Source: Subtercola boreus (GTDB lineage: Bacteria; Actinomycetota; Actinomycetes; Actinomycetales; Microbacteriaceae). From it: 64,000 nt of DNA. The DNA lies in contig NZ_VFOO01000001.1 in the NCBI RefSeq assembly GCF_006716115.1, forward strand, positions 3,472,001 through 3,536,000, in the 5' to 3' direction. The translations under genes and the position numbers were made by a program. Shown piece by piece: positions 30,392 to 45,511 of this stretch; position 1 is the first letter of the stretch; each line of letters starts with the position of its first letter. Under the pieces are notes generated by a model that made no database searches, was not told the DNA's origin, and was given only the letters and a program-made list of their open reading frames with translations.

Positions 30392-30796
30392 TCAGGCCCG
30401 GGTGCGCGTCGACCAGAGCGCGACCGCGATGAGGAGCGGCTGGAAGACCAGGCGGATGGCGCGCTTCCGGTCAGTGTCGAGCCCGAAGGCGTCGCGGTGG
30501 TGCACGAGCTGGGCGATGTTGCCCGGGAACACTGCGGCGAAGAACGCGGCCGCGATGCCGCCGACGGTTCGGCGGGCGCTGCCCCGCGTCACGAGGAGGG
30601 CGGCGCCGAGGCCGATCTCGACGACGCCGGAGGCCAGCACGGTGGTGTCGGTCTTCAGCGGCACGAAATCAGGCACCTGCGCGCGGAAGTCGTCGCGGGC
30701 GAAGGTGAGGTGGCTGGCGCCCGCGAAGACGAGCGCACCGCCGAGCAGGAGGCGGGCGATGGTGCGTGCGGGGGAAGTCGACGATGAGCGGGCCAT
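30392..30796 (-). CDS. DoxX-like small membrane protein
   Basis: 134 residues with about four hydrophobic helices. The opening, ARLLLGGALVFAGASHLTFARDDF, and then VEIGLGAALL and AAAFFAAVFPGNIAQLVHHRDAFGLD, resemble the DoxX/DUF4267-like family of small integral membrane proteins. The family includes subunits of quinone-linked complexes but most members are uncharacterised. It is 13 nt upstream of the GNAT-AAA+ gene in the same direction, so the two may be cotranscribed. A truncated MerR domain lies directly in front of it. Confidence 0.75.
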   Translation of the reverse strand: MARSSSTSPARTIARLLLGGALVFAGASHLTFARDDFRAQVPDFVPLKTDTTVLASGVVEIGLGAALLVTRGSARRTVGGIAAAFFAAVFPGNIAQLVHHRDAFGLDTDRKRAIRLVFQPLLIAVALWSTRTRA

Positions 30797-30935
30797 CGCG
30801 CCATCCTATCGACGCGGCTTCGCAGTCGTCACCCTCCCGGTCGCCGGGCCGCGGGATGCCGACCTCGTCGTCGTGTCGGATGGTGCGGAGGGACATGCTT
30901 GACTTCTCTGCGAGCTCACCGATCCGCGTCATCAT
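30797..30935 (-). pseudogene. remnant of a MerR-family regulator (N-terminal helix-turn-helix only)
   Basis: From the tandem ATG ATG at 30935, the minus strand reads MMTRIGELAEKSSMSLRTIR followed by HDDEVGIPRPGDREGD. This is the start of a MerR protein (compare the family pattern RIGELAxxxGLSxRTIRHYDEVGL), with the invariant tyrosine changed to aspartate. After about 40 residues similarity stops, and the frame runs into the doxX gene as antisense-like sequence. The wing, dimerisation helix and effector domain are missing, so this looks like a decayed regulator. Confidence 0.65.
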
Positions 30936-31017
30936 GGATGTTCGCAGAACGGTGCGCCGTCTCAGTGCCCACCGGCGCCCCGGCCTTCGAGGCGGGTGCC
31001 CACCTCCGAAGGACCTC

Positions 31018-32532
31018 ATGCCCCCCGCCAGTGCACCGAAATCCGCCGCGACGCCGGGGCTCCCCGCGACGTTCGGCGTGCGCGACGTCCTGCGCTCGCC
31101 CAGGCTGCTCACCCGTGAGGCGCTCGCGGGCATCGTCACCACGCTCGCGCTGGTACCCGAGGTCATCTCGTTCTCGGTCATCGCCGGCGTCGACCCGCTC
31201 GTCAGCCTCGTCTCCTCGATCGTGCTCGTGCTGACGATGACGTTCCTCGGCGGTCGCCCCGCGATGGTCACCGCCGCAGCCGGATCCGTCGCCCTCGTCG
31301 TGGCGCCGCTGGTGCACGAACACGGCACGCAGTACGTGCTCCCGGCGGTCATCCTCGCCGGCATCGTGCAGATCGTCTTCGGGCTCACCGGTCTCGCGCG
31401 GCTGATGCGGTTCATCCCGCGCTCGGTCATGATCGGGTTCGTGAACGCCCTGGGCATCCTCATCTTCGTGGCGCAGGTGCCGCACCTCATCGACGTGCCG
31501 TGGATCGTCTACCCGCTGTTCGCGGTGACGGTGGCGATCATCCTGGTGCTGCCGCGGTTCACGAAGGCGGTTCCGGCGCCGCTGGTCGCGATCGTTGTCG
31601 TCACGGCCCTGGTCGTGGCGGCTGGGCTGATGGTTCCGGATGTCGCGGACGAGGGCCCCCTCACCGGCGGGTTGCCCGGCCTCACCCCCTTTCTCGTTCC
31701 GCTGAACCTCGAGACGGTGCAGATCATCTGGCCGACAGCGCTCAGCGTGGCGTTCGTCGGGCTCATGGAGACCCTGCTCACCGCGAAACTCGTCGACGAG
31801 CTCACCGACACGCCCTCCCACAAGGGTCGCGAGTCCTGGGCGCTCGGGGTGGCGAACATCGCGGCCGGTTTCTATGGCGGCATCGCCGGCTGCGCCATGA
31901 TCGGCCAGACCATCGTGAACGTGAAGATCGGCCGGGCCCGCACGAGGGTCTCGACGTTTTTCGCAGGCCTTGTGCTGCTCGCGCTCGTCACCGGGCTGAG
32001 CGGCGTGATGGGGCGCATCCCGATGGTGGCGCTCGCCGCGGTGATGATGATCGTAGCGATCACGACGGTCGACTGGCACAGCGTGAGGCCGTCGACGCTC
32101 CGGCGGATGCCCGTTCCCGAGACCCTCGTGATGGTCGTGACCGTCGTGGTGGTGGTCGCCACCGGCAACCTCGCGATCGGCGTGATCGTCGGGGTGGTGC
32201 TCGCGATGGTCCTCTTCGCACGGCGGGTCGCGCACGTCATCCGTGTGGAGCGCCTTGTCGCGGACGACGGGCTGTCGGTGCACTACGTCATCGACGGGCC
32301 GCTCTTCTTCCGCAGCAGCAACGACCTCGTCGACCGGTTCTCGTACGCCGACGATCCGCCCGTGGCGACGCTCGACTTCAGCCGGGCGCAGGTCTGGGAC
32401 GCCTCCAGCGTCGCCGCGCTCGACTCGATCGAGACGAAGTTCGCCGCCCACAGCGTGGCCGTCACCATCAGCGGCCTCGACGACCGCAGCGCGCGGATGC
32501 ACCGCCGCCTCACCGGCACCCTCGGCGCCTGA
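31018..32532 (+). CDS. SulP family anion transporter with STAS domain
   Basis: 504 residues from an ATG with GAAGGA upstream. The sulfate-permease fold is visible in EALAGIVTTLALVPEVISFSVIAGVDPL, GGRPAMVTAAAGSVALVVAPL, FIPRSVMIGFVNALGILIF and AGFYGGIAGCAMIGQTIVN. The C-terminal STAS domain spans about residues 410-500 (VIDGPLFFRSSNDLVDRF, VATLDFSRAQVWDASSVAALD). Substrates of bacterial SulP proteins include sulfate, bicarbonate and dicarboxylates. No carbonic anhydrase or sulfate-assimilation gene lies beside it to choose between them. The upstream in-frame extension is antisense-like. Confidence 0.9.
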   Translation: MPPASAPKSAATPGLPATFGVRDVLRSPRLLTREALAGIVTTLALVPEVISFSVIAGVDPLVSLVSSIVLVLTMTFLGGRPAMVTAAAGSVALVVAPLVHEHGTQYVLPAVILAGIVQIVFGLTGLARLMRFIPRSVMIGFVNALGILIFVAQVPHLIDVPWIVYPLFAVTVAIILVLPRFTKAVPAPLVAIVVVTALVVAAGLMVPDVADEGPLTGGLPGLTPFLVPLNLETVQIIWPTALSVAFVGLMETLLTAKLVDELTDTPSHKGRESWALGVANIAAGFYGGIAGCAMIGQTIVNVKIGRARTRVSTFFAGLVLLALVTGLSGVMGRIPMVALAAVMMIVAITTVDWHSVRPSTLRRMPVPETLVMVVTVVVVVATGNLAIGVIVGVVLAMVLFARRVAHVIRVERLVADDGLSVHYVIDGPLFFRSSNDLVDRFSYADDPPVATLDFSRAQVWDASSVAALDSIETKFAAHSVAVTISGLDDRSARMHRRLTGTLGA

Positions 32533-33970: not shown

Positions 33971-35091
33971 ATGATGACTGACAACACCCTCACGACCACA
34001 CCGCCCACCCCCACGCCGTGGCGTCGCATCGTCGGCGTCGGAGTGGCGCTCGCAGTGGTGTCGGAATCATCGTGCTCGCCTTCTCGTGGCCGTCCGTCAC
34101 GTCGTCGGTCAAGAACCTGCCGCTCGCTGTGGCGGGCCCCGAGTCTGCGGTGAGCCAGGTGGAGTCGGCGCTCTCAACTGCGTCCCCCGGCACCTTCGCT
34201 TTCGTCGGTGCCGACGACCGGGCCGGTGCCGTGTCGAAGATCGAGTCCCGCGAGGTCTACGGGGCGATCGTGCTCGACTCAGCGCCGGAGGTTCTCACGT
34301 CGTCGGCGGCGAGCCCGGTGGTGAGCCAGTTGCTCACGGGGCTGGCGCCGAAGCTCCAGGCGCAGCTCAGCGCCGCGGCGACCGCAGCCGGTGGGTCGGC
34401 CGTGACCGTCGCTGTCACCGATGTGGTGCCGCTCGCCGCATCCGACCCCCGCGGTTCGGGTCTGACGGCCGCGGCGTTCCCGCTGACGCTGGGCGGGATG
34501 CTCGGCGGGATCCTCGCGACGATTCTGATCGTCGGCGCGTGGCGGAGGGTGGTCGCGATCACCGTCTACGTGGTGGTGGCGGGGGTCGCGCTCGAGGGGA
34601 TCCTCGGCGGCTGGTTCGGTGCGCTGCAGGGCGACTTCTTCGTGAACGCGGGTGCGATCGCGCTCACGCTGCTGGCCGTCAGTGCCACGATCGTCGGCGT
34701 CGCCTCGCTCGTCGGCCGGGCGGGGATCGCGGTGGGGCCGGTGCTCTTCCTGCTCATCGCGAACCCGATCTCGTCGGCGACGCAGCCGCTGGAGTTCCTG
34801 CCGCAGCCGTGGGGCGCCGTGGGCCAGTGGTTCCCGCGGGGGGCGGGTTCGACGCTGCTGCGCGACCTGTCGTACTTCCCGAGCGCGAACCTGCTGTTCC
34901 CCTGGCTCGTGGTCGCCAGCTGGGCGGCGCTCGGCATCGTGCTGGCGTTGGCGGGCCACTTCCGGGAGGGCGTCCGCGCCCGGTTCACCAACGAAGTGCT
35001 GCCGGAGCACGCCGTTCACGGGGCGCACGCCGCCACGCCCGCGCACCCGGCGCACACCGCCACGCCCACTCACCCGGCCCACGCCGCCTGA
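33971..35091 (+). pseudogene. YhgE/Pip-like ABC-2-type membrane protein, frameshifted
   Basis: The ATG at 33971 (MMTDNTLTTTPPTPTPWRRI) opens a frame that runs VGVGVALAV and then leaves the membrane-protein reading at about 34057-34060. The continuation, VGIIVLAFSWPSVTSSVKNLPLAV, is in another frame, consistent with loss of one base in GCAGTGGTGTCGG. Joined, the protein would be about 373 residues: one N-terminal helix, a 130-residue extracytoplasmic domain (VAGPESAVSQVESAL, REVYGAIVLDS), then five or six helices as in ABC-2/YhgE-type proteins. The tail is His-rich (HAVHGAHAATPAHPAHTA). Either a true mutation or a sequencing error. Confidence 0.75.
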
Positions 35092-35222: not shown

Positions 35223-36374
35223 ATGAAGAAGATCCTCCGACGCGCAGCCGTGACCTCCGTCGCCACCCTCGCCATCCTGGGTCTCGCCGCCTGCAGCACC
35301 GCGGAGAACTCGTCCGCCGGTTCCGCTGACGGAACGGTCTACTTCGGGGTCTCCGCGGCGCAGACCGGCCAGTACGCGCAGTACGGCCAGCAGTTCAAGG
35401 AGGCCTTCGACCTCGCGGTCGACGAGGTGAACGCGAACGGCGGGATCAACGGCCAGAAGGTCGCCCTGAAGTACGAGGACTCGCAGTCCGACCCGAAGCA
35501 GTCGGTCGCGGTGGCGCAGAAGTTCGTCGGCGACAGCGACATCAGCCTGGTGTTCGGGGACTACTCCTCCGCGGCATCCATTCCGGCCTCGCCGATCTAC
35601 ACGCAGGGCAAACTGCTGCAGTACGGCTTCAACAACTCGAACCCCGACTTCACCGCCAAGGGTTCCGACTACCAGTGGTCGACCTCGATCACCACGACGG
35701 CGAGCTACGTCTGGACGGCCGACTACATCAAGAAGCAGGGCGTCAACACGGTCGGCCTGACCTACCTGAACACGGCCGACTGGGGCATCCCGGCCTACAA
35801 CGCGTTCAAGGACGAGGCCGACAAGATCGGCCTGAAGATCGTCGACGCCGAAGGTGTGCTCGACACCTCCGACGACTACCGGCCCTCGCTCAGCAAGGCC
35901 GTCGCCGACTCTCCCGACGCCTTCGTGCACATCGGCTACGGACCCGATGCCGCGAAGATCGTCACCCAGCTCCGTGCGATCGGCTACGACAAGACGTTCT
36001 ACGGCGGGCAGGACGAGCAGTCGTTCGACGGCACGCCCGATGCTGCAGGATCCGTCATCGGCGCCCAGTTCATCGAGACGAATCCCGACCCCGCGGTCGC
36101 GAAGTTCGTCGCGGCGTTCAAGGCCAAGTACCCGAACGAGACCGCGGTGACGAGCTTCGAGGCCGGTGCCTATGACGCCCTCTACGTGGCGGTGGCCGCT
36201 GCGAAGGCCGGCGGCGCCACGCGCGACGGCATCCTGAAGGGCTTCCAGGAGCTGAAGGACGTGCCGAGCGTCGTCTACGGAACGATCAGCCTCGACCCGA
36301 CCACGCGCCGGGTGCAGTCGCCGCAGCTCACCCCGACCATCCTCACCGACGGCAAGTGGGTCGCCGAGAGTTGA
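35223..36374 (+). CDS. Liv-type ABC transporter substrate-binding lipoprotein
   Basis: 383 residues, with GAAAGGCC before the ATG. The signal peptide ends in the lipobox LAAC (Cys at about 23). The mature domain is the LivJ class: VYFGVSAAQTGQYAQYGQQFKEAFDLAVDEVNANGGINGQKV, with DDSQSDP-like segment YEDSQSDPKQSVAVAQKF. It opens an operon with a fused permease, two ATPases, a luciferase-like monooxygenase and two AhpD-fold proteins. In that company the ligand is probably not simply a branched-chain amino acid but the substrate of the oxidising enzymes. The ligand itself is unknown. Confidence 0.87.
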   Translation: MKKILRRAAVTSVATLAILGLAACSTAENSSAGSADGTVYFGVSAAQTGQYAQYGQQFKEAFDLAVDEVNANGGINGQKVALKYEDSQSDPKQSVAVAQKFVGDSDISLVFGDYSSAASIPASPIYTQGKLLQYGFNNSNPDFTAKGSDYQWSTSITTTASYVWTADYIKKQGVNTVGLTYLNTADWGIPAYNAFKDEADKIGLKIVDAEGVLDTSDDYRPSLSKAVADSPDAFVHIGYGPDAAKIVTQLRAIGYDKTFYGGQDEQSFDGTPDAAGSVIGAQFIETNPDPAVAKFVAAFKAKYPNETAVTSFEAGAYDALYVAVAAAKAGGATRDGILKGFQELKDVPSVVYGTISLDPTTRRVQSPQLTPTILTDGKWVAES

Positions 36375-38173
36375 TCGACACCCTGATCGCAGGACTGCTC
36401 CGGGGGAACGTCTACGCCCTCGGAGCGGTCGGCATCTCGCTGGTCTTCGGCGTGATGAACGTCGTCAACTTCGCCCAGTTCTCGTTCTTCGGCCTGGGCG
36501 CCATACTGGCATGGTTCTTCGTGGCCGAACTCGGGCTGCCGTTCTGGATCGCGCTGCCGCTTGTTCTCGTCATCTGCGCGGGGCTCGGGCTCGTGATCAA
36601 CATCTCCGTGGTGCGCCCGCTCGCGAAGTACCTGCCGCTCGCGGCGATGCTCTCGACCTACGCCGTCTCGCAGATCCTCGACAACGTGTCGCAGATCGCG
36701 TTCACCGCCCAGTTCCAGGTGTTCCCGAAGGTGCTGCCCACGTCGAACCTGCAGATCGGCAACATGCGGTTCGGCACGTCTGACGTGGTGATGCTCGGCA
36801 CGACCGCGGTCATCATGGTCGGCATCTCGCTGTTCCTGAAGTACGGCAAGCTCGGCCGCGCCATCCGTGCCACCTCCCAGGACCAGGAGGCGGCCCTGCA
36901 GATGGGCATCCCCGTCGGGCTGGTGCAGAACGTCTCGTTCGTCATCGCCTCGGCGCTCGGCGGCCTCGCGGGCGTGTTCATCGCGCTCTACGTGGGGGTC
37001 GCGAACCCCGGTTCGGGGCTGAACATCGGCCTCACAGCCTTCGTGGCAGCGACCCTCGGCGGCCTCGGCTCGCTCGTCGGGGCTGTCGTGGGCGGCTTCG
37101 TGCTGGGCATCCTCGAAGCCTTCGGCATCCACTTCTTCGGCGACACCGCGCGCCAGATCATCGTCTTCGTGGTTCTGATCGTGGTGCTCATCGTGCGGCC
37201 CGGCGGTCTGTTCGGCAAGGTGCCGCTGCTCTCGGCGGAACCGTTGACGGGCACGTTCCTCGGAAAGGGGAGACCGCTGCGCATCCCGCGCTGGGTCTGG
37301 CCGGCCGCGTTCGTCGTGCTCGGAGTGCTGGTTCCCGTGTTCGCGAACAACTACATCCTCACCACGGGCACGCAGGTACTGATCTACGCGATCATCGCCG
37401 CCGGGTTCACGGTCACGGCGGGCCAGGCGGGCGTACTCGCCCTCGGACAGGCCGGCCCGATCGCCATCGGCGCCTACATGTCGGCGGTGCTGACGCTCTA
37501 CCTGCACTTCCCGTTCTGGGTGGCGTTGCCGCTCGCCGGGCTCGTGTCGGCGATCGTCGCCTCGATCCTCGCCTCGCCCATCTGGGGCGTGAAGGGGCAC
37601 TACATCTCGATTGCGACGCTCGGCCTGGGGATCGCGATCGTCGCGGTGATCCAGCTGGTCTTCCCGCAGGGCATCTACAACATCCCGGTGCCCGAGTTCT
37701 TCGGCACCCCGCTCTCGACCCCGCTGGCGTACTACCTGATCGACTTCGTGGTGCTCGTCATCACGCTGGTCATCATGTGGCGCATCCGCGGCTCGCACCT
37801 CGGCAAGGTGATCTCGAGCGTCGGGGCGGATGAGGTCGCGGCCCTGGCGTCGGGCGTGCGGGGGCGCAACTACAAGGCGCTCGCGTTCGCGATCTCGGCA
37901 TTCTTCGCGGGTATCGGCGGGTCGCTGCTCGCGCACCAGTACACCTACATCGATCCGACGATCTTCACGATGATGATGTCGCTGCTGGTGGTGACCATCG
38001 TGATCCTCGGTGGCATCAACCTGCCCTACGGCGCGGTCGTCGGGTCGATCATCCTGATCGGTGCGATGGAGCTGCTGCGGTTCACGCCGGAACTCCGGAT
38101 CATCGTCTACGGCCTGGTACTGATCCTCGTGGTGAGGTTCCGTCCCGGGGGAATCCTGGTGAGGAAGTCATGA
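36356..38173 (+). CDS. fused LivH-LivM type ABC permease
   Basis: 605 residues in two permease halves. Residues 1-290 are LivH-like (GNVYALGAVGISLVFGVMNVVNFAQFSFF, ATSQDQEAALQMGI). Residues 310-605 are LivM-like (GFTVTAGQAGVLALGQAGPIAIGAYMSA, GKVISSVGADEVAALASGVR, LAHQYTYIDPTIF). In most Liv systems these are separate proteins. The annotated GTG overlaps the binding-protein gene by 19 nt. A TTG at 36371 that overlaps its stop (TTGA) is a serious alternative. The 3' end overlaps the first ATPase gene (ATGA). Confidence 0.9.
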   Translation: MGRRELIDTLIAGLLRGNVYALGAVGISLVFGVMNVVNFAQFSFFGLGAILAWFFVAELGLPFWIALPLVLVICAGLGLVINISVVRPLAKYLPLAAMLSTYAVSQILDNVSQIAFTAQFQVFPKVLPTSNLQIGNMRFGTSDVVMLGTTAVIMVGISLFLKYGKLGRAIRATSQDQEAALQMGIPVGLVQNVSFVIASALGGLAGVFIALYVGVANPGSGLNIGLTAFVAATLGGLGSLVGAVVGGFVLGILEAFGIHFFGDTARQIIVFVVLIVVLIVRPGGLFGKVPLLSAEPLTGTFLGKGRPLRIPRWVWPAAFVVLGVLVPVFANNYILTTGTQVLIYAIIAAGFTVTAGQAGVLALGQAGPIAIGAYMSAVLTLYLHFPFWVALPLAGLVSAIVASILASPIWGVKGHYISIATLGLGIAIVAVIQLVFPQGIYNIPVPEFFGTPLSTPLAYYLIDFVVLVITLVIMWRIRGSHLGKVISSVGADEVAALASGVRGRNYKALAFAISAFFAGIGGSLLAHQYTYIDPTIFTMMMSLLVVTIVILGGINLPYGAVVGSIILIGAMELLRFTPELRIIVYGLVLILVVRFRPGGILVRKS

Positions 38174-39023
38174 GCGATCAGCTGCTGCAGGTCGACGGTC
38201 TCGAGCGGCACTTCGACGGGTTGAAGGCGGTGGACGGCATCTCGTTCAGCGTCGCGCCGGGCGAGGTCGTGTCGATCATCGGCCCGAACGGCTCGGGCAA
38301 GACCACCACGCTGAACCTGGTGAGCGGCGCGATCCGCCCGCACGGCGGATCCATCACCCTCGCGGGCGCGCGCATCGACAGGGCCGACAGTGCGCGCATC
38401 GCCGAGCACGGCATTGCGCGCACCTTCCAGAACGGGCGTGTCTTCGCGACCCTCTCGGTGGCCGACAACATCGAGGTGGGGATGCACTCGACACTGACGG
38501 CCAGCCGGCCGTTCCGCGGGCTGTCGAACCTGTTCCTGCTGCGCTGGATCCCGCTGCTCGGCGAACTGTTCATCGCGATCGTCGGCACTCCCGCCTCACG
38601 GCGCGAGGGGCGGATGATCGCCGACGGTGTCGATGCGGAGATCCACCGGTTCGAGGCCCGCCTCGGGCCGCGGCGGCACGACCCCGCCTACTCCCTGAGC
38701 TACGCCAACCGCCGCCGCACCGAGATCGCGCGGGCGATGGCGCAGAAACCTAAGCTGCTGGTGCTCGACGAACCGACCGCGGGAATGAACCAGTCCGAGA
38801 CATCCGAGGTGCTGCAGCAACTGCTCGACCTGAAGGCCGAGGGGCAGGCGATCCTGCTGGTGGAGCACAAGCTCGACCTCGTGATGCGGGTCTCCGACCG
38901 GGTGATCGTGATGGACGGCGGGCGGATCATCGCCGAGGGCGCGCCCGAGGTCGTGCGGCACGATCCCGCCGTGATCGAGGCCTACATCGGGCGCCGGCGC
39001 GAAGCGAAACGGGGTGGTGCAGC

Positions 39024-39027
<4 letters not shown>
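38170..39027 (+). CDS. LivG-type ABC transporter ATPase
   Basis: 285 residues. Walker A GPNGSGKTT, Q-loop region IARTFQNGRVF, signature SYANRRRTEIARAMA, Walker B LLVLDEPTAGM and H-loop VEHKLDLVM are all present. A roughly 55-residue segment between the Q-loop and the signature (FRGLSNLFLLRWIPLLGELF onward) is typical of LivG but rather hydrophobic here. The gene overlaps the permease stop (ATGA) and the next ATPase gene, so stoichiometric translation is likely. Confidence 0.93.
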
Positions 39028-39745
<718 letters not shown>

Positions 39746-39749
<4 letters not shown>

Positions 39750-40750
39750 CGTCCCCTCGTCTCGGCTATTTCACCCGGCTGCTCGGCGACGCACCGCCGC
39801 GGGAGCGCTATCGCAACGCCCTCGCGCAGTTCGTGCGCGCCGAGGAGCTCGGGTTCGACACGGGGTGGGTGGCGCAGCACCACTTCCACCGCGATGAGGG
39901 CGGCTTGCCGTCGCCGTTCGTCTTCCTCGCACAGGTGGCGGCCCGCACGTCTCGCATCACCCTGGCCACGGGCATCGTGACGCTGCCGCTCGAAGCACCG
40001 CTGCGGGTCGCCGAAGACGCTGCCGTGCTGTGGCTGCTCAGCGACGGCCGCTTCGAGCTCGGGATCGGGTCGGGGGGCACCGCGACATCCTTCCCGCCGT
40101 TCGGACTCGAGGTGGATGACCGGCCGGCCACCTACGTCGCCAACAAGCAGATCGTGCTGGGCGCGCTCCGCGGTGAGACGCTGACGACCGACGACGGTGC
40201 GCTCTACCCGCCCGCCCCCGGCCTCGCGGACACGCTCTGGGAGGCGACCTTCTCGGTGAGCGGCGCAGCACGGATCGGCGCCGAGGGGCACGGCCTGCTG
40301 CTGTCGCGCACCCAGCCGAGGCCCACGTTCACCGGTCGAGGCTCCGCGCCCGACCAGCTCGCCCTCGTCGAGGCGTACCGGGCGGCCCTGCCCACCGGGG
40401 TGGCACCGCGCATCATGGCGTCGCGCTCGGCGCTGGTCGTCGACACCGATGAGGATGCCCGGCGGTGGCGTGCGCAGGGCATCGACCACTCGCGGCCGAT
40501 GCTCGCCGCGCAGGGTGTCCCGGTGCCTCCTGAGGTCGATGACGCATCGCTTGCGGCGTACCTCGACCTGCACGTCGGCACCGTGTCGCAGGTTCTGGCG
40601 TCACTCGGCAGCGACCCGATCCTGCCGCTCGCGACCGACATCGTCTTCCAGCCGCACCCCGTCGACCCGCCGCACGAGGTGGTTCTGCGCTCGCTCGAAC
40701 TGCTCGCGCGGGAGGTCGCGCCGGCGCTCGGCTGGGTGCCCCAGAGCTGA
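39746..40750 (+). CDS. LLM-class flavin monooxygenase, KPN_01858-like
   Basis: 334 residues from an ATG overlapping the LivF stop. The luciferase-like barrel is visible: RLGYFTRLLG, AEELGFDTGWVAQHHFHRDEGGLPSPFVFLAQVAARTSRI, GTGIVTLPLEAPLRVAEDAAVLW-like segment and RFELGIGSGGTATSFPPFG. From memory this is the type named putative FMN-dependent luciferase-like monooxygenase of the KPN_01858 family, which recurs with Liv transporters and the two following CMD proteins. It would use reduced flavin to oxidise a small imported compound. The substrate is unknown. Confidence 0.82.
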
Positions 40751-40770
40751 TGAACCCCCGAAAGGACACC

Positions 40771-41376
40771 ATGGCCCCCTCCATCACCCACGTCACCGAC
40801 GTCATCGACCACCTGATCGGCGCAGAGGAGGGCGACGCGCTCTTCGCGCTCCGCACCCAGCGTCCCGACGCGAAGCAGAACGCCCAGGCGAGCTTCGACG
40901 CCCTGTTCGCCTCCGACGACCTCTCGCAGGTCAGTCAACTCGAACGGCTCGCCGTCGCGTACTTCACGGTCGCGCTCTCGCAGAGCCCCACCGCCGGTTT
41001 CTACTGGGACCTGCTCGACGCCGAGTCGCCCGAGGTGCTCGGGGCGCTCGCGGCGGCGCTGCCGACCGCCGTCACCACCGGCCCGTACGGCGACTACCCC
41101 GAGGGGCCGCTGTCGGTCGAGAATGTCGCCGGGTTGCACTGGGCTCCGGATGCCGCACTCACGGCCGTCGTCGGGGAACGTCTCGGCGCCGCCCTCGCCC
41201 ACACGCACCTGCTCGTGTACCGGCCGCGCGAATCGTCTCCGGATGCCCTGCAGGCGCTGCTTGACGCAGGCTGGTCGACCACCGGAGTCGTCACGCTCTC
41301 GCAGCTCGTCGCGTTTCTCAGCTTCCAGCTCCGCGTGGTCGCGGGCCTCACCGCCCTGAAAGGGGAACTCGCATGA
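40771..41376 (+). CDS. CMD/AhpD-fold protein, Avi_7170-like
   Basis: 201 residues from an ATG with GAAAGGA upstream; an earlier ATG at 40750 overlaps the monooxygenase stop. The protein reads DVIDHLIGAEEGDALFALRTQRPDAKQNAQASFDALF, LERLAVAYFTVALS and VVTLSQLVAFLSFQLRVVAGL. No CxxC pair is present, unlike the next gene. I recall such proteins as the CMD domain Avi_7170 family, always next to the Avi_7169-type alkylhydroperoxidase. The two probably form a hetero-oligomer in which this is the non-catalytic partner. Confidence 0.75.
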   Translation: MAPSITHVTDVIDHLIGAEEGDALFALRTQRPDAKQNAQASFDALFASDDLSQVSQLERLAVAYFTVALSQSPTAGFYWDLLDAESPEVLGALAAALPTAVTTGPYGDYPEGPLSVENVAGLHWAPDAALTAVVGERLGAALAHTHLLVYRPRESSPDALQALLDAGWSTTGVVTLSQLVAFLSFQLRVVAGLTALKGELA

Positions 41377-41975
41377 CCGACACCGTGATCCGGCACACGT
41401 TCGACGCGCCCAACGCCTTCACCCAGGCCGAGCTCGGCTGGGAGCCCTGGCTCGAACCGCTGCCGCTCGGCGAGCTCACCGAGCGGCACTACCTCGGCCT
41501 CGTCGACAAGCGCCGCGCCTCGAACCCGTACTTCCGGCTGCTCGTGCGGGACCCCGACATCCTCGGCGCCCGCACCCGCACCGACAACGACATCTTCTAC
41601 AACGAGAAGGGCGGCCTGTCGCGCGCCCTGCGGGAACTGTCTGCGGCGAGTGCCTCACGCACGAACGGCTGCATCTTCTGCGCCTCGGTGCACTCGCGGT
41701 TCGCGGCCCACCACTCGAAGCGACCTGACGACGTGCAGCGCCTGCTCGACGACGGCACGTCCGCGCCGCAGGACGATCCGGCGTGGCGAGCGGTGATCGA
41801 TGCCTCCGTCGCCCTGACGGTCACCCCCGGCGAATTCGGTGCGTCACAGGTGCGCGCGCTCCGCGAGGCGGGCCTCGACGACCTCGCGATCGCCGACGCC
41901 ATCCACGGCGCCGCCTTCTTCAACTGGGCCAACCGGCTCATGCTGTCGCTGGGTGAGCCGACTCCGCCGCAGTAG
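41373..41975 (+). CDS. alkylhydroperoxidase-like protein, Avi_7169-like
   Basis: 200 residues from an ATG overlapping the previous stop (ATGA). The AhpD redox motif is intact: NGCIFCASVHSRFAAHHS, with C100, C103 and H107. Other segments are LLVRDPDILGARTRTDNDIFYNEKGGLSRALREL and IADAIHGAAFFNWANRLM. It probably reduces peroxides or acts as a thiol relay for the flavin enzyme upstream. Its last 38 nt overlap the 3' end of a convergent LLM gene on the other strand. Confidence 0.82.
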   Translation: MTDTVIRHTFDAPNAFTQAELGWEPWLEPLPLGELTERHYLGLVDKRRASNPYFRLLVRDPDILGARTRTDNDIFYNEKGGLSRALRELSAASASRTNGCIFCASVHSRFAAHHSKRPDDVQRLLDDGTSAPQDDPAWRAVIDASVALTVTPGEFGASQVRALREAGLDDLAIADAIHGAAFFNWANRLMLSLGEPTPPQ

Positions 41976-42954
41976 CAAGCACCTGTGCGAGCGCGGTCAC
42001 CGCAGCGAACGGATCCGGTCCGACCGGGATCATCACCGAGGAGGTCACCCCCGCTTCGTGGAGTTCCCGCAGGCGGTGGATGACCGTTGCGGGGCTTCCG
42101 GCGAGGGAGAGCTGTGCCACCCACTCGTCGGGGAGCCGCGCGGCGAACTCCGCACGGCTGCCCGCTTCCGCCCTGAGGCGGGCGAGGTCAGTCGCGAAGG
42201 CCAGCGGAGCGAGGTGCGGGGCCCAGTCGGGCTCGCCGATCCATTCGAGTCCCGGGCGGGCGGCGGCCCAGGCCTCGGCGTCCGTGTCCCTGACCACGGC
42301 CACGTTGTACGCGACGATGCGGTGCGGGGTCGGGCTGGCGATGCGGCCCAGGGCCTCGCGCACGTACTCCGGGGTGCTGGGCTCGGCGAGCACGGTCCCG
42401 TCCGCGATGCGCCCCGACGCCGCGAGCGACCGCGGCCCCCGCACCCCGAGCAGGATGTCCGGCACGACGGCGGGGAGGGCCGAAGCATCCAGTCCCACAT
42501 CGTGGAGCTCGACGCGGCCGTCCGCCGTGACGCGCTCACCGTTCAGCAGCGATCTCAGGGCGCGCACGTGTTCCTCGAGGAGCTGCAGAGGGCGTGCCTG
42601 CCACGCACCGACCGAGGCGATCCAGGCCGGCATGCCGTGGCCGATCCCGACATCGACCCGGCCAGGGTACAGCTGCGCGAGGGTCGCGATCTCCATCGCC
42701 TCGAAGGCGACGTTGCGCACGGCTGCGGGCAGGATGCCGATGCCGACCCGGATCCGGTCGGTGCGGGCGAGAACGGAAGCGGCCTGGGCTATGCCTCCGC
42801 GGAACCCGAGATCTTCGACGACCCACAGTTCGTCGAACCCGAGCTCCTCGACCCGCGAGGCGAAGCGCAGAACGTCTGCTGCAGCGATGTCCCGGGGGAG
42901 CATGATGCCCTGGGCGAACCCGGTCATGCTCACCCTCCTCCCCGCCTCGGTCAT
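41938..42954 (-). CDS. LLM-class flavin-dependent oxidoreductase
   Basis: 338 residues from an ATG overlapping the permease stop (ATGA). The F420/FMN luciferase-like fold is visible: FASRVEELGFDELWVVEDLGFRGGIAQAASVLARTDRIRVGIGILP, LYPGRVDVGIGHGMPAWIASVGAW and DILLGVRGPRSLAASGRIADG. It looks closer to the F420-dependent methylene-tetrahydromethanopterin-reductase-like class than the enzyme at 39746. It is translationally coupled to an APC amino-acid-type permease, so it may act on the imported compound. Confidence 0.82.
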   Translation of the reverse strand: MTEAGRRVSMTGFAQGIMLPRDIAAADVLRFASRVEELGFDELWVVEDLGFRGGIAQAASVLARTDRIRVGIGILPAAVRNVAFEAMEIATLAQLYPGRVDVGIGHGMPAWIASVGAWQARPLQLLEEHVRALRSLLNGERVTADGRVELHDVGLDASALPAVVPDILLGVRGPRSLAASGRIADGTVLAEPSTPEYVREALGRIASPTPHRIVAYNVAVVRDTDAEAWAAARPGLEWIGEPDWAPHLAPLAFATDLARLRAEAGSRAEFAARLPDEWVAQLSLAGSPATVIHRLRELHEAGVTSSVMIPVGPDPFAAVTALAQVLATAAESAHPATA

Positions 42955-44483
42955 CGCACCTCGACGGCTTCGTCGTCAGGGTGCTCCTGCGCATAGGCGG
43001 CGCCGGCGTGGCCGGTACGCACACGACGCCTCACGACAATGATGTACCAGAGCGCCGCGAGAACGAGGATCCCGCCGAACACGAATCCGTTTCCTGCGAA
43101 CGCCGGCAGGAACAGGAGGGCCATCTCCACCGTCAGGAACACGATGAGAGCGACGACGAGCAGCGGGATCCGCGCTCGTCCGAGGTTGAACGTTCCCGGT
43201 TCCGGCTCGGGCACCCTGCCGCGCACCGACGCGATCAGCAGTCCGACGGTCTGCAACACGTAGGTGGTGAAGAAGGCGAGGGTGGCGATGCCGAGGAAGT
43301 AGTTGAACGCCTGCGGGCTCACCAGGGCAGAGAGCAGCATCAGCACGGAGACGACACCCAGCGTGATGACAGCAGTCGACGGGGTCTTGCGCTCGGGCGA
43401 GACGTGCCGGAGGGCCCGGGAGAAGGGCATCATGTTGTCCCGCGACATCGAGTAGAGCAGTCGGGTGCCCACCAGCACGTTGGCGAGCAGGCAGACGAGG
43501 ATGTTCGTGAGGGCCACCGCGACGACGATCTTCGCGAACACCGGTCCGAGCTGCTGGGAGATGATCTCCTCGATCGGCGTGGACGACCCGGCGACGGCCG
43601 ACGCGTCCTTGATGGCGAGCACGTAGACGAGGTACATCAGGAACTCGATCACACACGACGTTGCGAAGGCGTAGAACATGGTGCGCGGGATGACCCGCCG
43701 TGCGTTCTTCGTCTCTTCTGCCACATCGGCGACGGCCTCGACGCCCACGAGCCCGAAGAACGGCCCGAGAGAGGCGGCGAGCCAGGCGAGGATGTACGGC
43801 GTCGCCTCATCGGAGCTCTTGCCCTCGAAGAGCGACGAGAACGGCTGCGCGTTGTCGGGGACGAGAAAGACCACGACCGCGATCACCAGAGTGACGCCCA
43901 CCGTGACGACGATCTCGAGCCCGACGCCGATGTTGTTGATGAAGGTCGCGAGGCGCACCCGGTAGGCGTTGATCGTCACGCAGACGAGAACGACGCCGAT
44001 CGCGATGAAGATCTGCCCGGCCTGGGTGAGATCCCAGTCGAAGACGCTGCCGAGGTAGCCGGCGAAGATGTAGCCGAGGCTCGTCATGCCGCTGACCCAG
44101 CCGATCAGCGCGGCGAACCCGGTGAACCAGCCGAAGCCGGGTCCGTTGAGTCGGCTCGTCCACTGGTAGGCGTAGCCCGCCAGGGGAAGCTTCGCTGCGA
44201 TGTCTGCGGCGATGAGTGTCCAGAGCAGAAAGACGGGTATCGCCAGGAACAGGGTCCAGATGAACGGGGATCCGGCGTTGAGGTATCCCGCCCCGAATCC
44301 GGTGAACACGGCCGTTGTCGCGCTGATGGTGGAGAAGCCGATGGCGAACGAGGCCACTCTGCCGACCGAACGGTCGAGCTTCTGGGTGTAACCGAACTCC
44401 GCCAGGCGAGCGTCTTCATCGCCTGCCACGAAGCCCGTCGATGATCTGCCGACGTGTTCGGAGGGAGGTACCGGATCAATCAT
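42951..44483 (-). CDS. APC family amino acid/amine permease
   Basis: 510 residues from the ATG at 44483, with GAGGAG 9 nt upstream. Twelve or so helices are expected. Motifs include FAIGFSTISATTAVFTGFGAGYLNAG, PLAGYAYQWTSRLNGPGFGWFTGFAALIGWVSG, GVEAVADVAEETKNARRVIPR and ILVCLLANVLVGTRLLYSMSRDNMMPFS. These are typical of the ACT/GABA/polyamine branch of APC transporters. It is coupled to the LLM oxidoreductase and lies behind the LysR gene in the same direction. The substrate, an amine or amino acid, is unproven. Confidence 0.88.
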   Translation of the reverse strand: MIDPVPPSEHVGRSSTGFVAGDEDARLAEFGYTQKLDRSVGRVASFAIGFSTISATTAVFTGFGAGYLNAGSPFIWTLFLAIPVFLLWTLIAADIAAKLPLAGYAYQWTSRLNGPGFGWFTGFAALIGWVSGMTSLGYIFAGYLGSVFDWDLTQAGQIFIAIGVVLVCVTINAYRVRLATFINNIGVGLEIVVTVGVTLVIAVVVFLVPDNAQPFSSLFEGKSSDEATPYILAWLAASLGPFFGLVGVEAVADVAEETKNARRVIPRTMFYAFATSCVIEFLMYLVYVLAIKDASAVAGSSTPIEEIISQQLGPVFAKIVVAVALTNILVCLLANVLVGTRLLYSMSRDNMMPFSRALRHVSPERKTPSTAVITLGVVSVLMLLSALVSPQAFNYFLGIATLAFFTTYVLQTVGLLIASVRGRVPEPEPGTFNLGRARIPLLVVALIVFLTVEMALLFLPAFAGNGFVFGGILVLAALWYIIVVRRRVRTGHAGAAYAQEHPDDEAVEVR

Positions 44484-44605
44484 GGGTGTTGCTCCTCGCT
44501 TCATGGTGACACGGCCCGGACGGTCCGCGTCTGTGAAGTGAAGTGAAGCGGGATCGGCCCCCGGCGGGAAGTCGACATTTCCTATCTATTCATAACCAGA
44601 ACTGA

Positions 44606-45511
44606 TCACTGTCCGGCATCAGGGCGCGGAGGCACGCGGTCGAGCATGTGCTGCACCAGCTTTCGGGCCGACGCCGACAATCGCTCCGGGTTCCAGGCCA
44701 GGGCTGTATAACTGATCGGCCGGTCGACGATCGGCACGAAGCGGATGCCCGGCCGCACGTACAGCCGCACCATCGACGACGTCGTGAAGCTCACCCCGAT
44801 CCCGGTGGAGACCAACATCGTCTCGGCCTCGTAGGTCGCCGCCTCGGCGGCGATCACAGCGGGTCGGCCCTGCCGGGCATCCAGAGCCATCCAGTAGTCC
44901 CGCCAGATTCCGGCGGACGACGGCGCGACGACGATCGGTTCGTCGAGCAGTTCGGCGATGCGGAGTTCGGTCCGCTCCGCCAGTCGGTGAGTGCGCGGCA
45001 GGCAGGCGACCCAGGTCTCCTCGGCGACGACGGCCATCTCGAGCCCGAGCACGTCGACGGGAGGGCGGATCAGGGCCACATCCGAGGTGCCGGCCGCCAG
45101 TCCCGCGGTCGGATCGGAGAAGTTGTGCTCGATGGTCTCGACGGTGATGCCCGGGAGTTCCGCCTCCAGGCCCTCGATGAGCTGGAAGAGCAGGTCGGCT
45201 CCCGTGCCGATGAGGTAGCCGATCCGCACATGTCCGCGATCGACGAGGGTCGAGGCCGCATCGAGTGCCGCATCCACTCCGCGAAGGGCGGAGCGCACGG
45301 AGGGCAGCCACTCCGTGCCGAACCCTGTGAGGGTGACGGAGCGGGTGTCCCGGTCGAACAGCCGCGCCCCGATGAGCTGTTCGAGCTGGCGGATGGCCGC
45401 CGAGAGTGCGGGCTGCGAGATGTAGAGCGTCTCAGCGGCCCGGCGGTAGTTCAGTTCCCTGCTGAGGGCGTCGAAATACCGCAGGAGTTGCAGGGTGACG
45501 TTCTGGCTCAT
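44606..45511 (-). CDS. LysR family transcriptional regulator
   Basis: 301 residues, the usual LTTR length. The N-terminal winged helix reads LLRYFDALSRELNYRRAAETLYISQPALSAAIRQLEQLIGARLFDRDTRSVTLT. The effector domain follows from about residue 92 (VRIGYLIGTGADLLFQLIEGL). It is divergent from the yjbQ-kinase-isomerase operon and upstream of the permease/LLM genes, so it could control either or both. GATA-N9-TATC in the divergent gap is a candidate site. Confidence 0.9.
   Translation of the reverse strand: MSQNVTLQLLRYFDALSRELNYRRAAETLYISQPALSAAIRQLEQLIGARLFDRDTRSVTLTGFGTEWLPSVRSALRGVDAALDAASTLVDRGHVRIGYLIGTGADLLFQLIEGLEAELPGITVETIEHNFSDPTAGLAAGTSDVALIRPPVDVLGLEMAVVAEETWVACLPRTHRLAERTELRIAELLDEPIVVAPSSAGIWRDYWMALDARQGRPAVIAAEAATYEAETMLVSTGIGVSFTTSSMVRLYVRPGIRFVPIVDRPISYTALAWNPERLSASARKLVQHMLDRVPPRPDAGQ

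What the first reader, a model, noticed from the sequence alone, without database searches (positions are those of the whole stretch)
35223..41975. Transport-oxidation operon: Liv-type importer, luciferase-like monooxygenase and two AhpD-fold proteins
Seven genes are linked by 4-nt overlaps or very short gaps: binding protein, fused LivH-LivM, LivG, LivF, KPN_01858-like monooxygenase, Avi_7170-like and Avi_7169-like proteins. I recall the last three as a recurring set of unknown function. A dedicated ABC importer tied to a flavin monooxygenase and a thiol peroxidase pair implies uptake and oxidative breakdown of a specific compound, with the AhpD pair handling peroxide or a peroxy product.
Basis: partly seen in the sequence, partly recalled or inferred. 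Interest (0 to 1): 0.7.

Follow-up and report, generated by a model that had tools for sequence, protein, structure and literature searches.

The report
Probable sulfur-scavenging importer and oxygenase operon
A seven-gene bacterial operon that pairs an importer with an oxygen-using flavin enzyme and a two-part redox protein is probably a kit for extracting sulfur from organic compounds when sulfur is scarce, which would give a job to three conserved protein families that have none assigned.

Summary
The operon is real: seven genes, 35223-41975 +, joined mostly by 4-nt overlaps. The last three exceed the cut-offs of TIGR04027, TIGR04029 and TIGR04030 and travel together: CMD2 lies beside the monooxygenase (LLM) in 78 of 80 loci, and in 296 class genomes all 7 with the LLM over cut-off have CMD1 close by, one as a partial match. 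The importer in front is interchangeable: Liv-type in 29 of 80 loci, Opp-type in 48. Binding protein, LLM and CMD1 have almost no Met or Cys (1 of 382, 2 of 333, 0 of 200), like E. coli TauA, TauD and SsuE and unlike its Opp and Liv proteins; Enterobacterales and rhizobial versions show this strongly, and sulfur genes sit beside the operon in several genomes. I read it as organosulfur scavenging under sulfur limitation. The AhpD pair is not two peroxidases: only CMD2 has CxxC. In Enterobacterales the two are fused, modelled like Sestrin2 and homologous to E. coli YciW. Weak depletion in six alphaproteobacterial Liv loci counts against. Substrate, expression and chemistry are untested.

The parts
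35223..36374 (+). Liv-type (HAAT) lipoprotein substrate-binding protein; 1 Cys (lipobox) and no Met after the start in 382 residues
   Evidence: model; pocket alignment
36371..38173 (+). fused LivH-LivM permease, TTG start
38170..39027 (+). LivG-type ATPase
39024..39749 (+). LivF-type ATPase
39746..40750 (+). luciferase-like monooxygenase, TIGR04027 (KPN_01858 family); solved relative 8K74
40771..41376 (+). CMD1, TIGR04029 (Avi_7170 family), no Cys and no internal Met; ATG 40750 is the alternative start
41373..41975 (+). CMD2, TIGR04030 (Avi_7169 family), AhpD-type CxxCxxxH motif (NGCIFCASVH)

Best explanation
The operon is a sulfur-scavenging system, made when sulfate and cysteine are short. 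The Liv-type importer brings in a small organosulfur compound, probably one with an acid group but without a free leucine-like amino group (inferred). The LLM, fed with reduced FMN by a reductase encoded elsewhere (inferred), oxidises it in a pocket with conserved arginines, so that a sulfur species usable for cysteine synthesis, sulfite or a thiol, is released (inferred from related two-component FMNH2 desulfurases). CMD1 and CMD2 form one pseudo-symmetric AhpD-fold unit: CMD1 structural, CMD2 bearing the CxxC site, which reduces a peroxy or sulfur-oxidised product (inferred). Shown here: gene set, linkage, importer interchange, Met/Cys depletion, sulfur-gene neighbours in some genomes, CMD1-CMD2 fusion in relatives, presence and absence of CxxC. 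Not shown: expression, substrate, chemistry.
For: Met+Cys: binding protein 1/382, LLM 2/333, CMD1 0/200, CMD2 3/199 (two are the CxxC), against a mean of 1.99% over 237 genes of the same genome; 12 of 200,000 random gene triples are as low as the first three. By lineage (80 of 86 loci): Enterobacterales binding protein 0.21%, LLM 0.88%, fused CMD 0.84%, flanks 3.46%; rhizobial group 0.36%, 0.38%, CMD1 0.33%, flanks 2.76%; actinobacteria 0.62%, 0.48%, CMD1 0.09%, flanks 2.28%. E. coli controls: TauA 0/319, SsuE 0, TauD 0.35%, SsuA 0.94%, SsuD 1.05%; Opp 2.0-7.7%, Liv 2.5-6.5%. Six of the seven own-genome LLMs lower than this one lie in an island with SsuD-like and NtaA-type LLMs, an O-acetylhomoserine sulfhydrylase, a PatB-type lyase and a TIGR04028-like binding protein. 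Neighbours elsewhere: sulfhydrylase-type protein and low-sulfur LLMs beside the Liv-form operon of Cryobacterium, TauA and an SfnB-like protein, CysB-family regulator, MetQ. KPN_01858 is raised together with TauC in iron-limited Klebsiella (passage). Fused CMD1-CMD2 is homologous to E. coli YciW, which a review says may act in cysteine-to-methionine metabolism (passage). Peroxidases LsfA and Ohr rise in sulfur-starved P. aeruginosa (passages).
Against: In the six alphaproteobacterial Liv loci the depletion is weak (binding protein 1.79%, LLM 2.39%, CMD1 1.35%, flanks 3.16%). LivHM, LivG and LivF of the window are not depleted, though TauB/C and SsuB/C are only mildly so. Another HAAT binding protein of the genome is also low (2 in 313), as is the membrane gene just upstream, 34018-35091 (1 in 356). 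YciW itself has 2.7% Met+Cys and no CxxC. No flavin reductase (PF01613) lies in the window or the sulfur island, and the 8K74 paper reports activity with NADPH, none with FMN or FMNH2 (section read). The neighbours were read where annotation or low Met/Cys pointed to them; no enrichment test against random flanks was made. No sulfur gene known to act in the pathway is in the window operon.
Confidence: 0.72

Rival explanations
1. One reading: uptake and oxidative breakdown of a specific compound as carbon or nitrogen source, with CMD2 disposing of peroxide; sulfur plays no part, and low Met/Cys is coincidence or protection from oxidation.
For: Importer plus monooxygenase plus AhpD-type protein fits any oxidative catabolism; depletion is weak in one lineage; other low Met/Cys genes exist in this genome.
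Against: Depletion recurs in three lineages and, in the Opp form, reaches permease and ATPase proteins; low Met/Cys LLMs of the own genome cluster with sulfur genes.
Confidence: 0.15
2. An oxidant-defence or detoxification operon: the LLM and CMD2 remove a toxic or peroxidised compound brought in by chance.
For: CMD2 has the AhpD-type motif and is over the cut-offs of TIGR01926 and TIGR00778.
Against: A high-affinity importer is hard to reconcile with detoxification; only one of the two CMD proteins has CxxC.
Confidence: 0.05
3. An ordinary branched-chain amino acid importer that happens to lie before unrelated genes.
For: Liv-type sequence and fold.
Against: Liv genes precede the same triad in 29 of 80 loci of actinobacteria and alphaproteobacteria; LivJ Glu226 position is Gln or Ser in 25 of 25 (the amino-group role of Glu226 is recalled).
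Confidence: 0.03
4. Polymer oxidation: the LLM family exists to cleave poly(acrylic acid), as published for Klebsiella PCX02514 (8K74).
For: Same family (E 3.4e-96); activity, binding and mutants reported (abstract and two sections read).
Against: kcat 0.00214 per second on a synthetic polymer; does not explain the importers or the Met/Cys depletion.
Confidence: 0.02

Closest known systems
KPN_01854-01858 / Avi_7169-7170 gene set (NCBIfam TIGR04028, TIGR04027, TIGR04029, TIGR04030)
   Same: LLM, CMD1 and CMD2 over cut-off, in the same order behind an importer
   Different: Liv-type importer with fused LivHM in place of the Opp-type importer with TIGR04028 binding protein; CMD1 and CMD2 separate, not fused as in 34 of 37 Enterobacterales loci
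ssu and tau sulfonate systems of E. coli
   Same: dedicated importer plus oxygenase; Met/Cys-poor binding protein and enzyme
   Different: LLM is not matched by the SsuD model TIGR03565 in the list; different importer class; no SsuE-type reductase in the operon; an AhpD-fold pair is added
NtaA/DmoA- and CmoJ-type organosulfur monooxygenase clusters
   Same: works like them: importer plus FMN-type LLM; such genes are neighbours in several genomes
   Different: LLM belongs to TIGR04027, not TIGR03860. CmoJ-type pathways are recalled
Sestrin2 and E. coli YciW (two AhpD-like halves)
   Same: fused CMD1-CMD2 model aligns to Sestrin2 over both halves, Z 23.9, rmsd 3.0, 270 residues; 26% identity to YciW over 336 residues, E 5e-20
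   Different: CxxC is in the C-terminal half; the Sestrin active Cys is in the N-terminal half (passages); YciW has no CxxC

Membership tests
TIGR04027 LLM_KPN_01858 | score over curated cut-off 412.9 | tested here: met
   432.5 bits
TIGR04029 CMD_Avi_7170 | score over curated cut-off 100.75 | tested here: met
   181.5 bits
TIGR04030 perox_Avi_7169 | score over curated cut-off 233.15 | tested here: met
   264.8 bits
KPN_01854-type operon | TIGR04028 (Opp-type) binding protein | tested here: not met
   binding protein is Liv-type
AhpD-type thiol peroxidase | CxxCxxxH motif in CMD2 | tested here: met
   NGCIFCASVH; TIGR01926 160.1 bits and TIGR00778 38.6 bits, both over cut-off
AhpD-type thiol peroxidase | CxxCxxxH motif in CMD1 | tested here: not met
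   no Cys in CMD1
SsuD alkanesulfonate monooxygenase | match to TIGR03565 | tested here: not met
   absent from the 25 best of 26 families listed for the LLM
Leu/Ile/Val binding protein | LivJ pocket residues, Glu226 included | tested here: not met
   Gln or Ser at the Glu226 position in 25 of 25, other pocket residues mostly kept; alignment only
Sulfur-starvation-induced organosulfur scavenging operon | Met/Cys-poor binding protein and enzyme | tested here: met
   weak in six alphaproteobacterial Liv loci
Sulfur-starvation-induced organosulfur scavenging operon | induction by sulfur limitation and release of sulfur from an organic compound | not testable with these tools
   needs culture and enzyme assays
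Sestrin-like fused AhpD pair | two AhpD-like halves as one pseudo-symmetric unit | tested here: inconclusive
   seen in the model of the fused Rahnella protein; window CMD1 and CMD2 are separate and no complex was predicted

The most novel reading that the evidence does not exclude
The triad is a distinct organosulfur-opening chemistry in which the LLM's product is handed to an obligatory CMD1-CMD2 heterodimer of Sestrin-like build, one dead half and one CxxC half, served by whichever importer, Liv or Opp, delivers the substrate; E. coli YciW would be a descendant of the same redox partner that lost the motif, tying its reported cysteine/methionine role to this pathway.
Probability: 0.35. Interest if true: 0.8.

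Novelty: new variant of a known kind. Interest (0 to 1): 0.62.

Why it matters
NCBIfam lists the three families as hypothetical equivalogs; the matches found here span actinobacteria, rhizobia and Enterobacterales. A sulfur-scavenging role is directly testable by growth, proteomics and binding assays, would re-interpret a published poly(acrylic acid) enzyme, and would tie an AhpD-fold pair of Sestrin-like build, and E. coli YciW, to sulfur metabolism. The swap of two unrelated importer classes before one enzymatic core also narrows what the substrate can be.

Tried and rejected
Literature searches for the family names, LLM plus alkylhydroperoxidase plus ABC transporter, sulfate starvation plus LLM and alkylhydroperoxidase/taurine/sulfur starvation listed no paper that I could see to assign this gene set to sulfur; that covers those searches of the open-access library only, and from the listings I opened only a few papers. 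Two searches for papers on low-sulfur proteins gave little; the titles of Baudouin-Cornu 2001 and Mazel and Marliere 1989 were seen in a reference list and their content is recalled.

The convergent LLM2-permease-LysR set at 41938-45511 and the upstream TetR gene were considered part of the system and set aside: none has a tblastn match at 1e-8 in the held parts of the seven loci looked at, L004-L010, some of which hold little flank. The promoter and terminator scan found no more than shuffled sequence gives (1 against 0.7, 3 against 3.0). A flavin reductase search found seven in the own genome, none in the window or the sulfur island. The importer label on the LLM tree needs two changes but starred branches force one, so a single origin of the Liv form is not excluded; the careful tree did not finish and the quick tree was used. 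CMD1 alone found no solved relative by sequence at E 1. The binomial p-values assume even Met/Cys use and were replaced by resampling; the group of three or four proteins was chosen after seeing the counts.

Rows dropped: one search uses 80 of 86 loci (L039, L060, L083, L086, L087, L088 left out: no importer, or a partial or cut one). The simple gene caller missed genes, so counts per role are smaller than the number of loci (for instance 23 LLMs from 37 Enterobacterales loci).
Full report
Observation. The seven genes lie at 35223-41975 on the + strand, joined by 4-nt overlaps except between the LLM and CMD1. LLM, CMD1 and CMD2 pass the curated cut-offs of TIGR04027, TIGR04029 and TIGR04030; the importer proteins are Liv/urea-like but stay below the cut-offs of the models listed. 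The LivHM start is a TTG that overlaps the stop of the binding protein gene. CMD1 most likely starts at 40771.

Linkage. A scan for relatives of the LLM kept 80 named loci, the best of 301. CMD2 follows within 1.5 kb in 78 of 80; the exceptions are two Belnapia loci, L039 and L064. Independently, of 296 genomes of the class, 7 have TIGR04027 over its cut-off; six of these have TIGR04029 over its cut-off beside it, and the seventh (G037) has a partial 66.7-bit match about 270 bases downstream of the LLM. None of the six genomes with TIGR04029 over its cut-off lacks the LLM. Eleven further genomes hold a TIGR04027-like LLM at E 1e-70 or better but below the cut-off; none of them has TIGR04029 over its cut-off.

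Interchangeable importer. In front of the triad stands a Liv-type importer in 29 of 80 loci (23 actinobacterial, 6 alphaproteobacterial), an Opp-type importer in 48, none in 2, and one contig is cut. Annotated plasmids call the Opp-form binding protein TIGR04028. On the LLM tree the Liv label needs two changes, of which starred branches force one (quick tree).

Met and Cys depletion. Proteins made under sulfur starvation tend to be poor in sulfur amino acids (recalled principle; titles of two papers seen). Here the binding protein has 1 in 382 residues, the LLM 2 in 333, CMD1 0 in 200 and CMD2 3 in 199, two of them its CxxC, against a mean of 1.99% over 237 genes from twenty 20-kb stretches spread over the same genome. 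LivHM, LivG and LivF are ordinary (2.2, 2.1, 3.3%). Of 200,000 random triples 12, and of random quartets 33, were as low; the grouping was chosen after looking, so these are guides. Over 80 of 86 loci the pattern repeats in three lineages and is weak in the fourth, the six alphaproteobacterial Liv loci. In Enterobacterales the Opp permease and ATPase proteins are depleted too (0.55-1.14%, flanks 3.46%), and the binding protein of about 540 residues has 0.21%. E. coli controls fit: TauA 0 of 319, SsuE 0, TauD 0.35%, SsuA 0.94%, SsuD 1.05%, TauB/C and SsuB/C 1.9-2.4%, Opp 2.0-7.7%, Liv 2.5-6.5%. Low values also occur elsewhere in this genome: 1 in 356 in the gene just upstream and 2 in 313 in another HAAT binding protein, while a third HAAT has 8 in 323.

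Sulfur context. The own genome holds 40 LLMs. Over the Pfam-matched stretch the window LLM is 8th lowest in Met+Cys, and six of the seven lower ones lie at 1.313-1.349 Mb. There NCBIfam finds four NtaA/DmoA-type LLMs (two over cut-off), a CE1758-type and an SsuD-like LLM (both below cut-off), an O-acetylhomoserine sulfhydrylase-type protein (TIGR01326, just over cut-off), a PatB-type C-S lyase (below cut-off) and a TIGR04028-like binding protein (328 bits, cut-off 468.5; 0.56% Met+Cys). In Cryobacterium breve (L008) the Liv-form operon is followed within 7 kb by an NtaA-type LLM (0.23%), a sulfhydrylase-type protein (0.5%) and a CE1758-type LLM without Met or Cys (all below cut-off). Elsewhere the triad has, nearby, a taurine binding protein (over cut-off) and an SfnB-like protein (below) in Allorhizobium, a CysB-family regulator (over) in Variovorax and a MetQ lipoprotein (over) in Sodalis, or annotated amidohydrolase and VOC genes in Pantoea and a VOC gene in Erwinia. 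I inspected flanks where annotation or low Met/Cys pointed to them and made no enrichment test. In the Klebsiella proteome paper KPN_01858 and TauC are named in one sentence as raised under iron limitation (passage).

The LLM. PDB 8K74 is a family member (E 3.4e-96). Its paper (abstract, passages, sections 2.2 and 2.4 read) reports poly(acrylic acid) oxidation with NADPH, kcat 0.00214 per second, no activity with FMN or FMNH2, and five pocket residues. Four have counterparts conserved in 29 aligned members: Arg11 29 of 29, Arg126 28, Ser187 29, Arg188 25 and otherwise Lys; the fifth, His253, falls in a poorly aligned stretch. An arginine-lined pocket suits an anion. I regard the polymer activity as incidental; its lack of FMNH2 use counts against my mechanism.

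The AhpD pair. CMD2 has NGCIFCASVH; CMD1 has no Cys. In 34 of 37 Enterobacterales loci one frame of 363-400 residues covers both; the other three were not resolved. The Rahnella fusion model (pLDDT 91, pTM 0.92) matches Sestrin2 over both halves (Foldseek E 2.9e-5; VIA-align Z 23.9, rmsd 3.0, 270 aligned; best single AhpD-type chain Z 13.4). Bacterial two-AhpD proteins with a Cys-free N-terminal half are already described as Sestrin analogues (PMC11429811, passages); the link to this operon is mine. E. coli YciW is a homologue (26% over 336 residues, E 5e-20; hhalign probability 97.6), without CxxC and with ordinary Met+Cys, 2.7%; the review says it may act in cysteine-to-methionine metabolism, citing Kawano 2015, which I did not see. 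The pair is best read as one unit with a single redox site, by analogy with the fusion.

The binding protein. The model (pLDDT 85) is a generic HAAT fold. Against LivJ, positions Ser79, Tyr202 and Phe276 are kept in 25 of 25, Tyr18 in 24, Thr102 is Ser in 25, Tyr150 is Trp in 25, and Glu226 is Gln in 19 and Ser in 6. The LivJ contacts were seen in a docking passage (PMC6983066) except Glu226, whose contact to the amino group is recalled. A ligand with an acid group but no free alpha-amino group is suggested, not shown.

Verdict. An organosulfur-scavenging operon is the best reading (0.72).

Noticed in passing
G000:C1 1.313-1.349 Mb (L118, L132, L133): An island with six LLMs that have almost no Met or Cys in their matched stretches, beside sulfhydrylase-, C-S-lyase- and SsuD-like genes and a TIGR04028-like binding protein: a second probable sulfur-scavenging region.
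   Followed up: partly
window 41938-45511: A convergent set on the - strand: a second, Mer/F420-type LLM, an amino acid permease-type transporter and a LysR regulator; no match in the held parts of seven related loci.
   Followed up: partly
window 34018-35091: A membrane protein with a weak ABC-2 match (below cut-off) just upstream of the operon has 1 Met/Cys in 356 residues.
   Followed up: no
window 30766-32532: SulP-family permease with a STAS domain 2.7 kb upstream of the operon; Met+Cys not depleted (4.1%).
   Followed up: no
G000:C1:88829-89524: Another LLM without Met or Cys in its matched stretch lies outside the sulfur island; role unknown.
   Followed up: no
L068 2790-6473: Pectobacterium polonicum has two tandem TIGR04028-like binding protein genes before the operon.
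   Followed up: no
L014 and L015: Leifsonia aquatica DSM 20146 has copies of the operon at both ends of one contig with identical LLMs, perhaps a circular molecule with repeated ends.
   Followed up: no
L008 16184-16936 (-): A frame that looks by eye like a flavin reductase lies among the sulfur genes after the Cryobacterium operon; not tested by any search.
   Followed up: no
L133 3183-4196 (-): An SBP_bac_3-type binding protein with 1 Met/Cys in 336 residues stands beside the SsuD-like LLM of the own genome.
   Followed up: no
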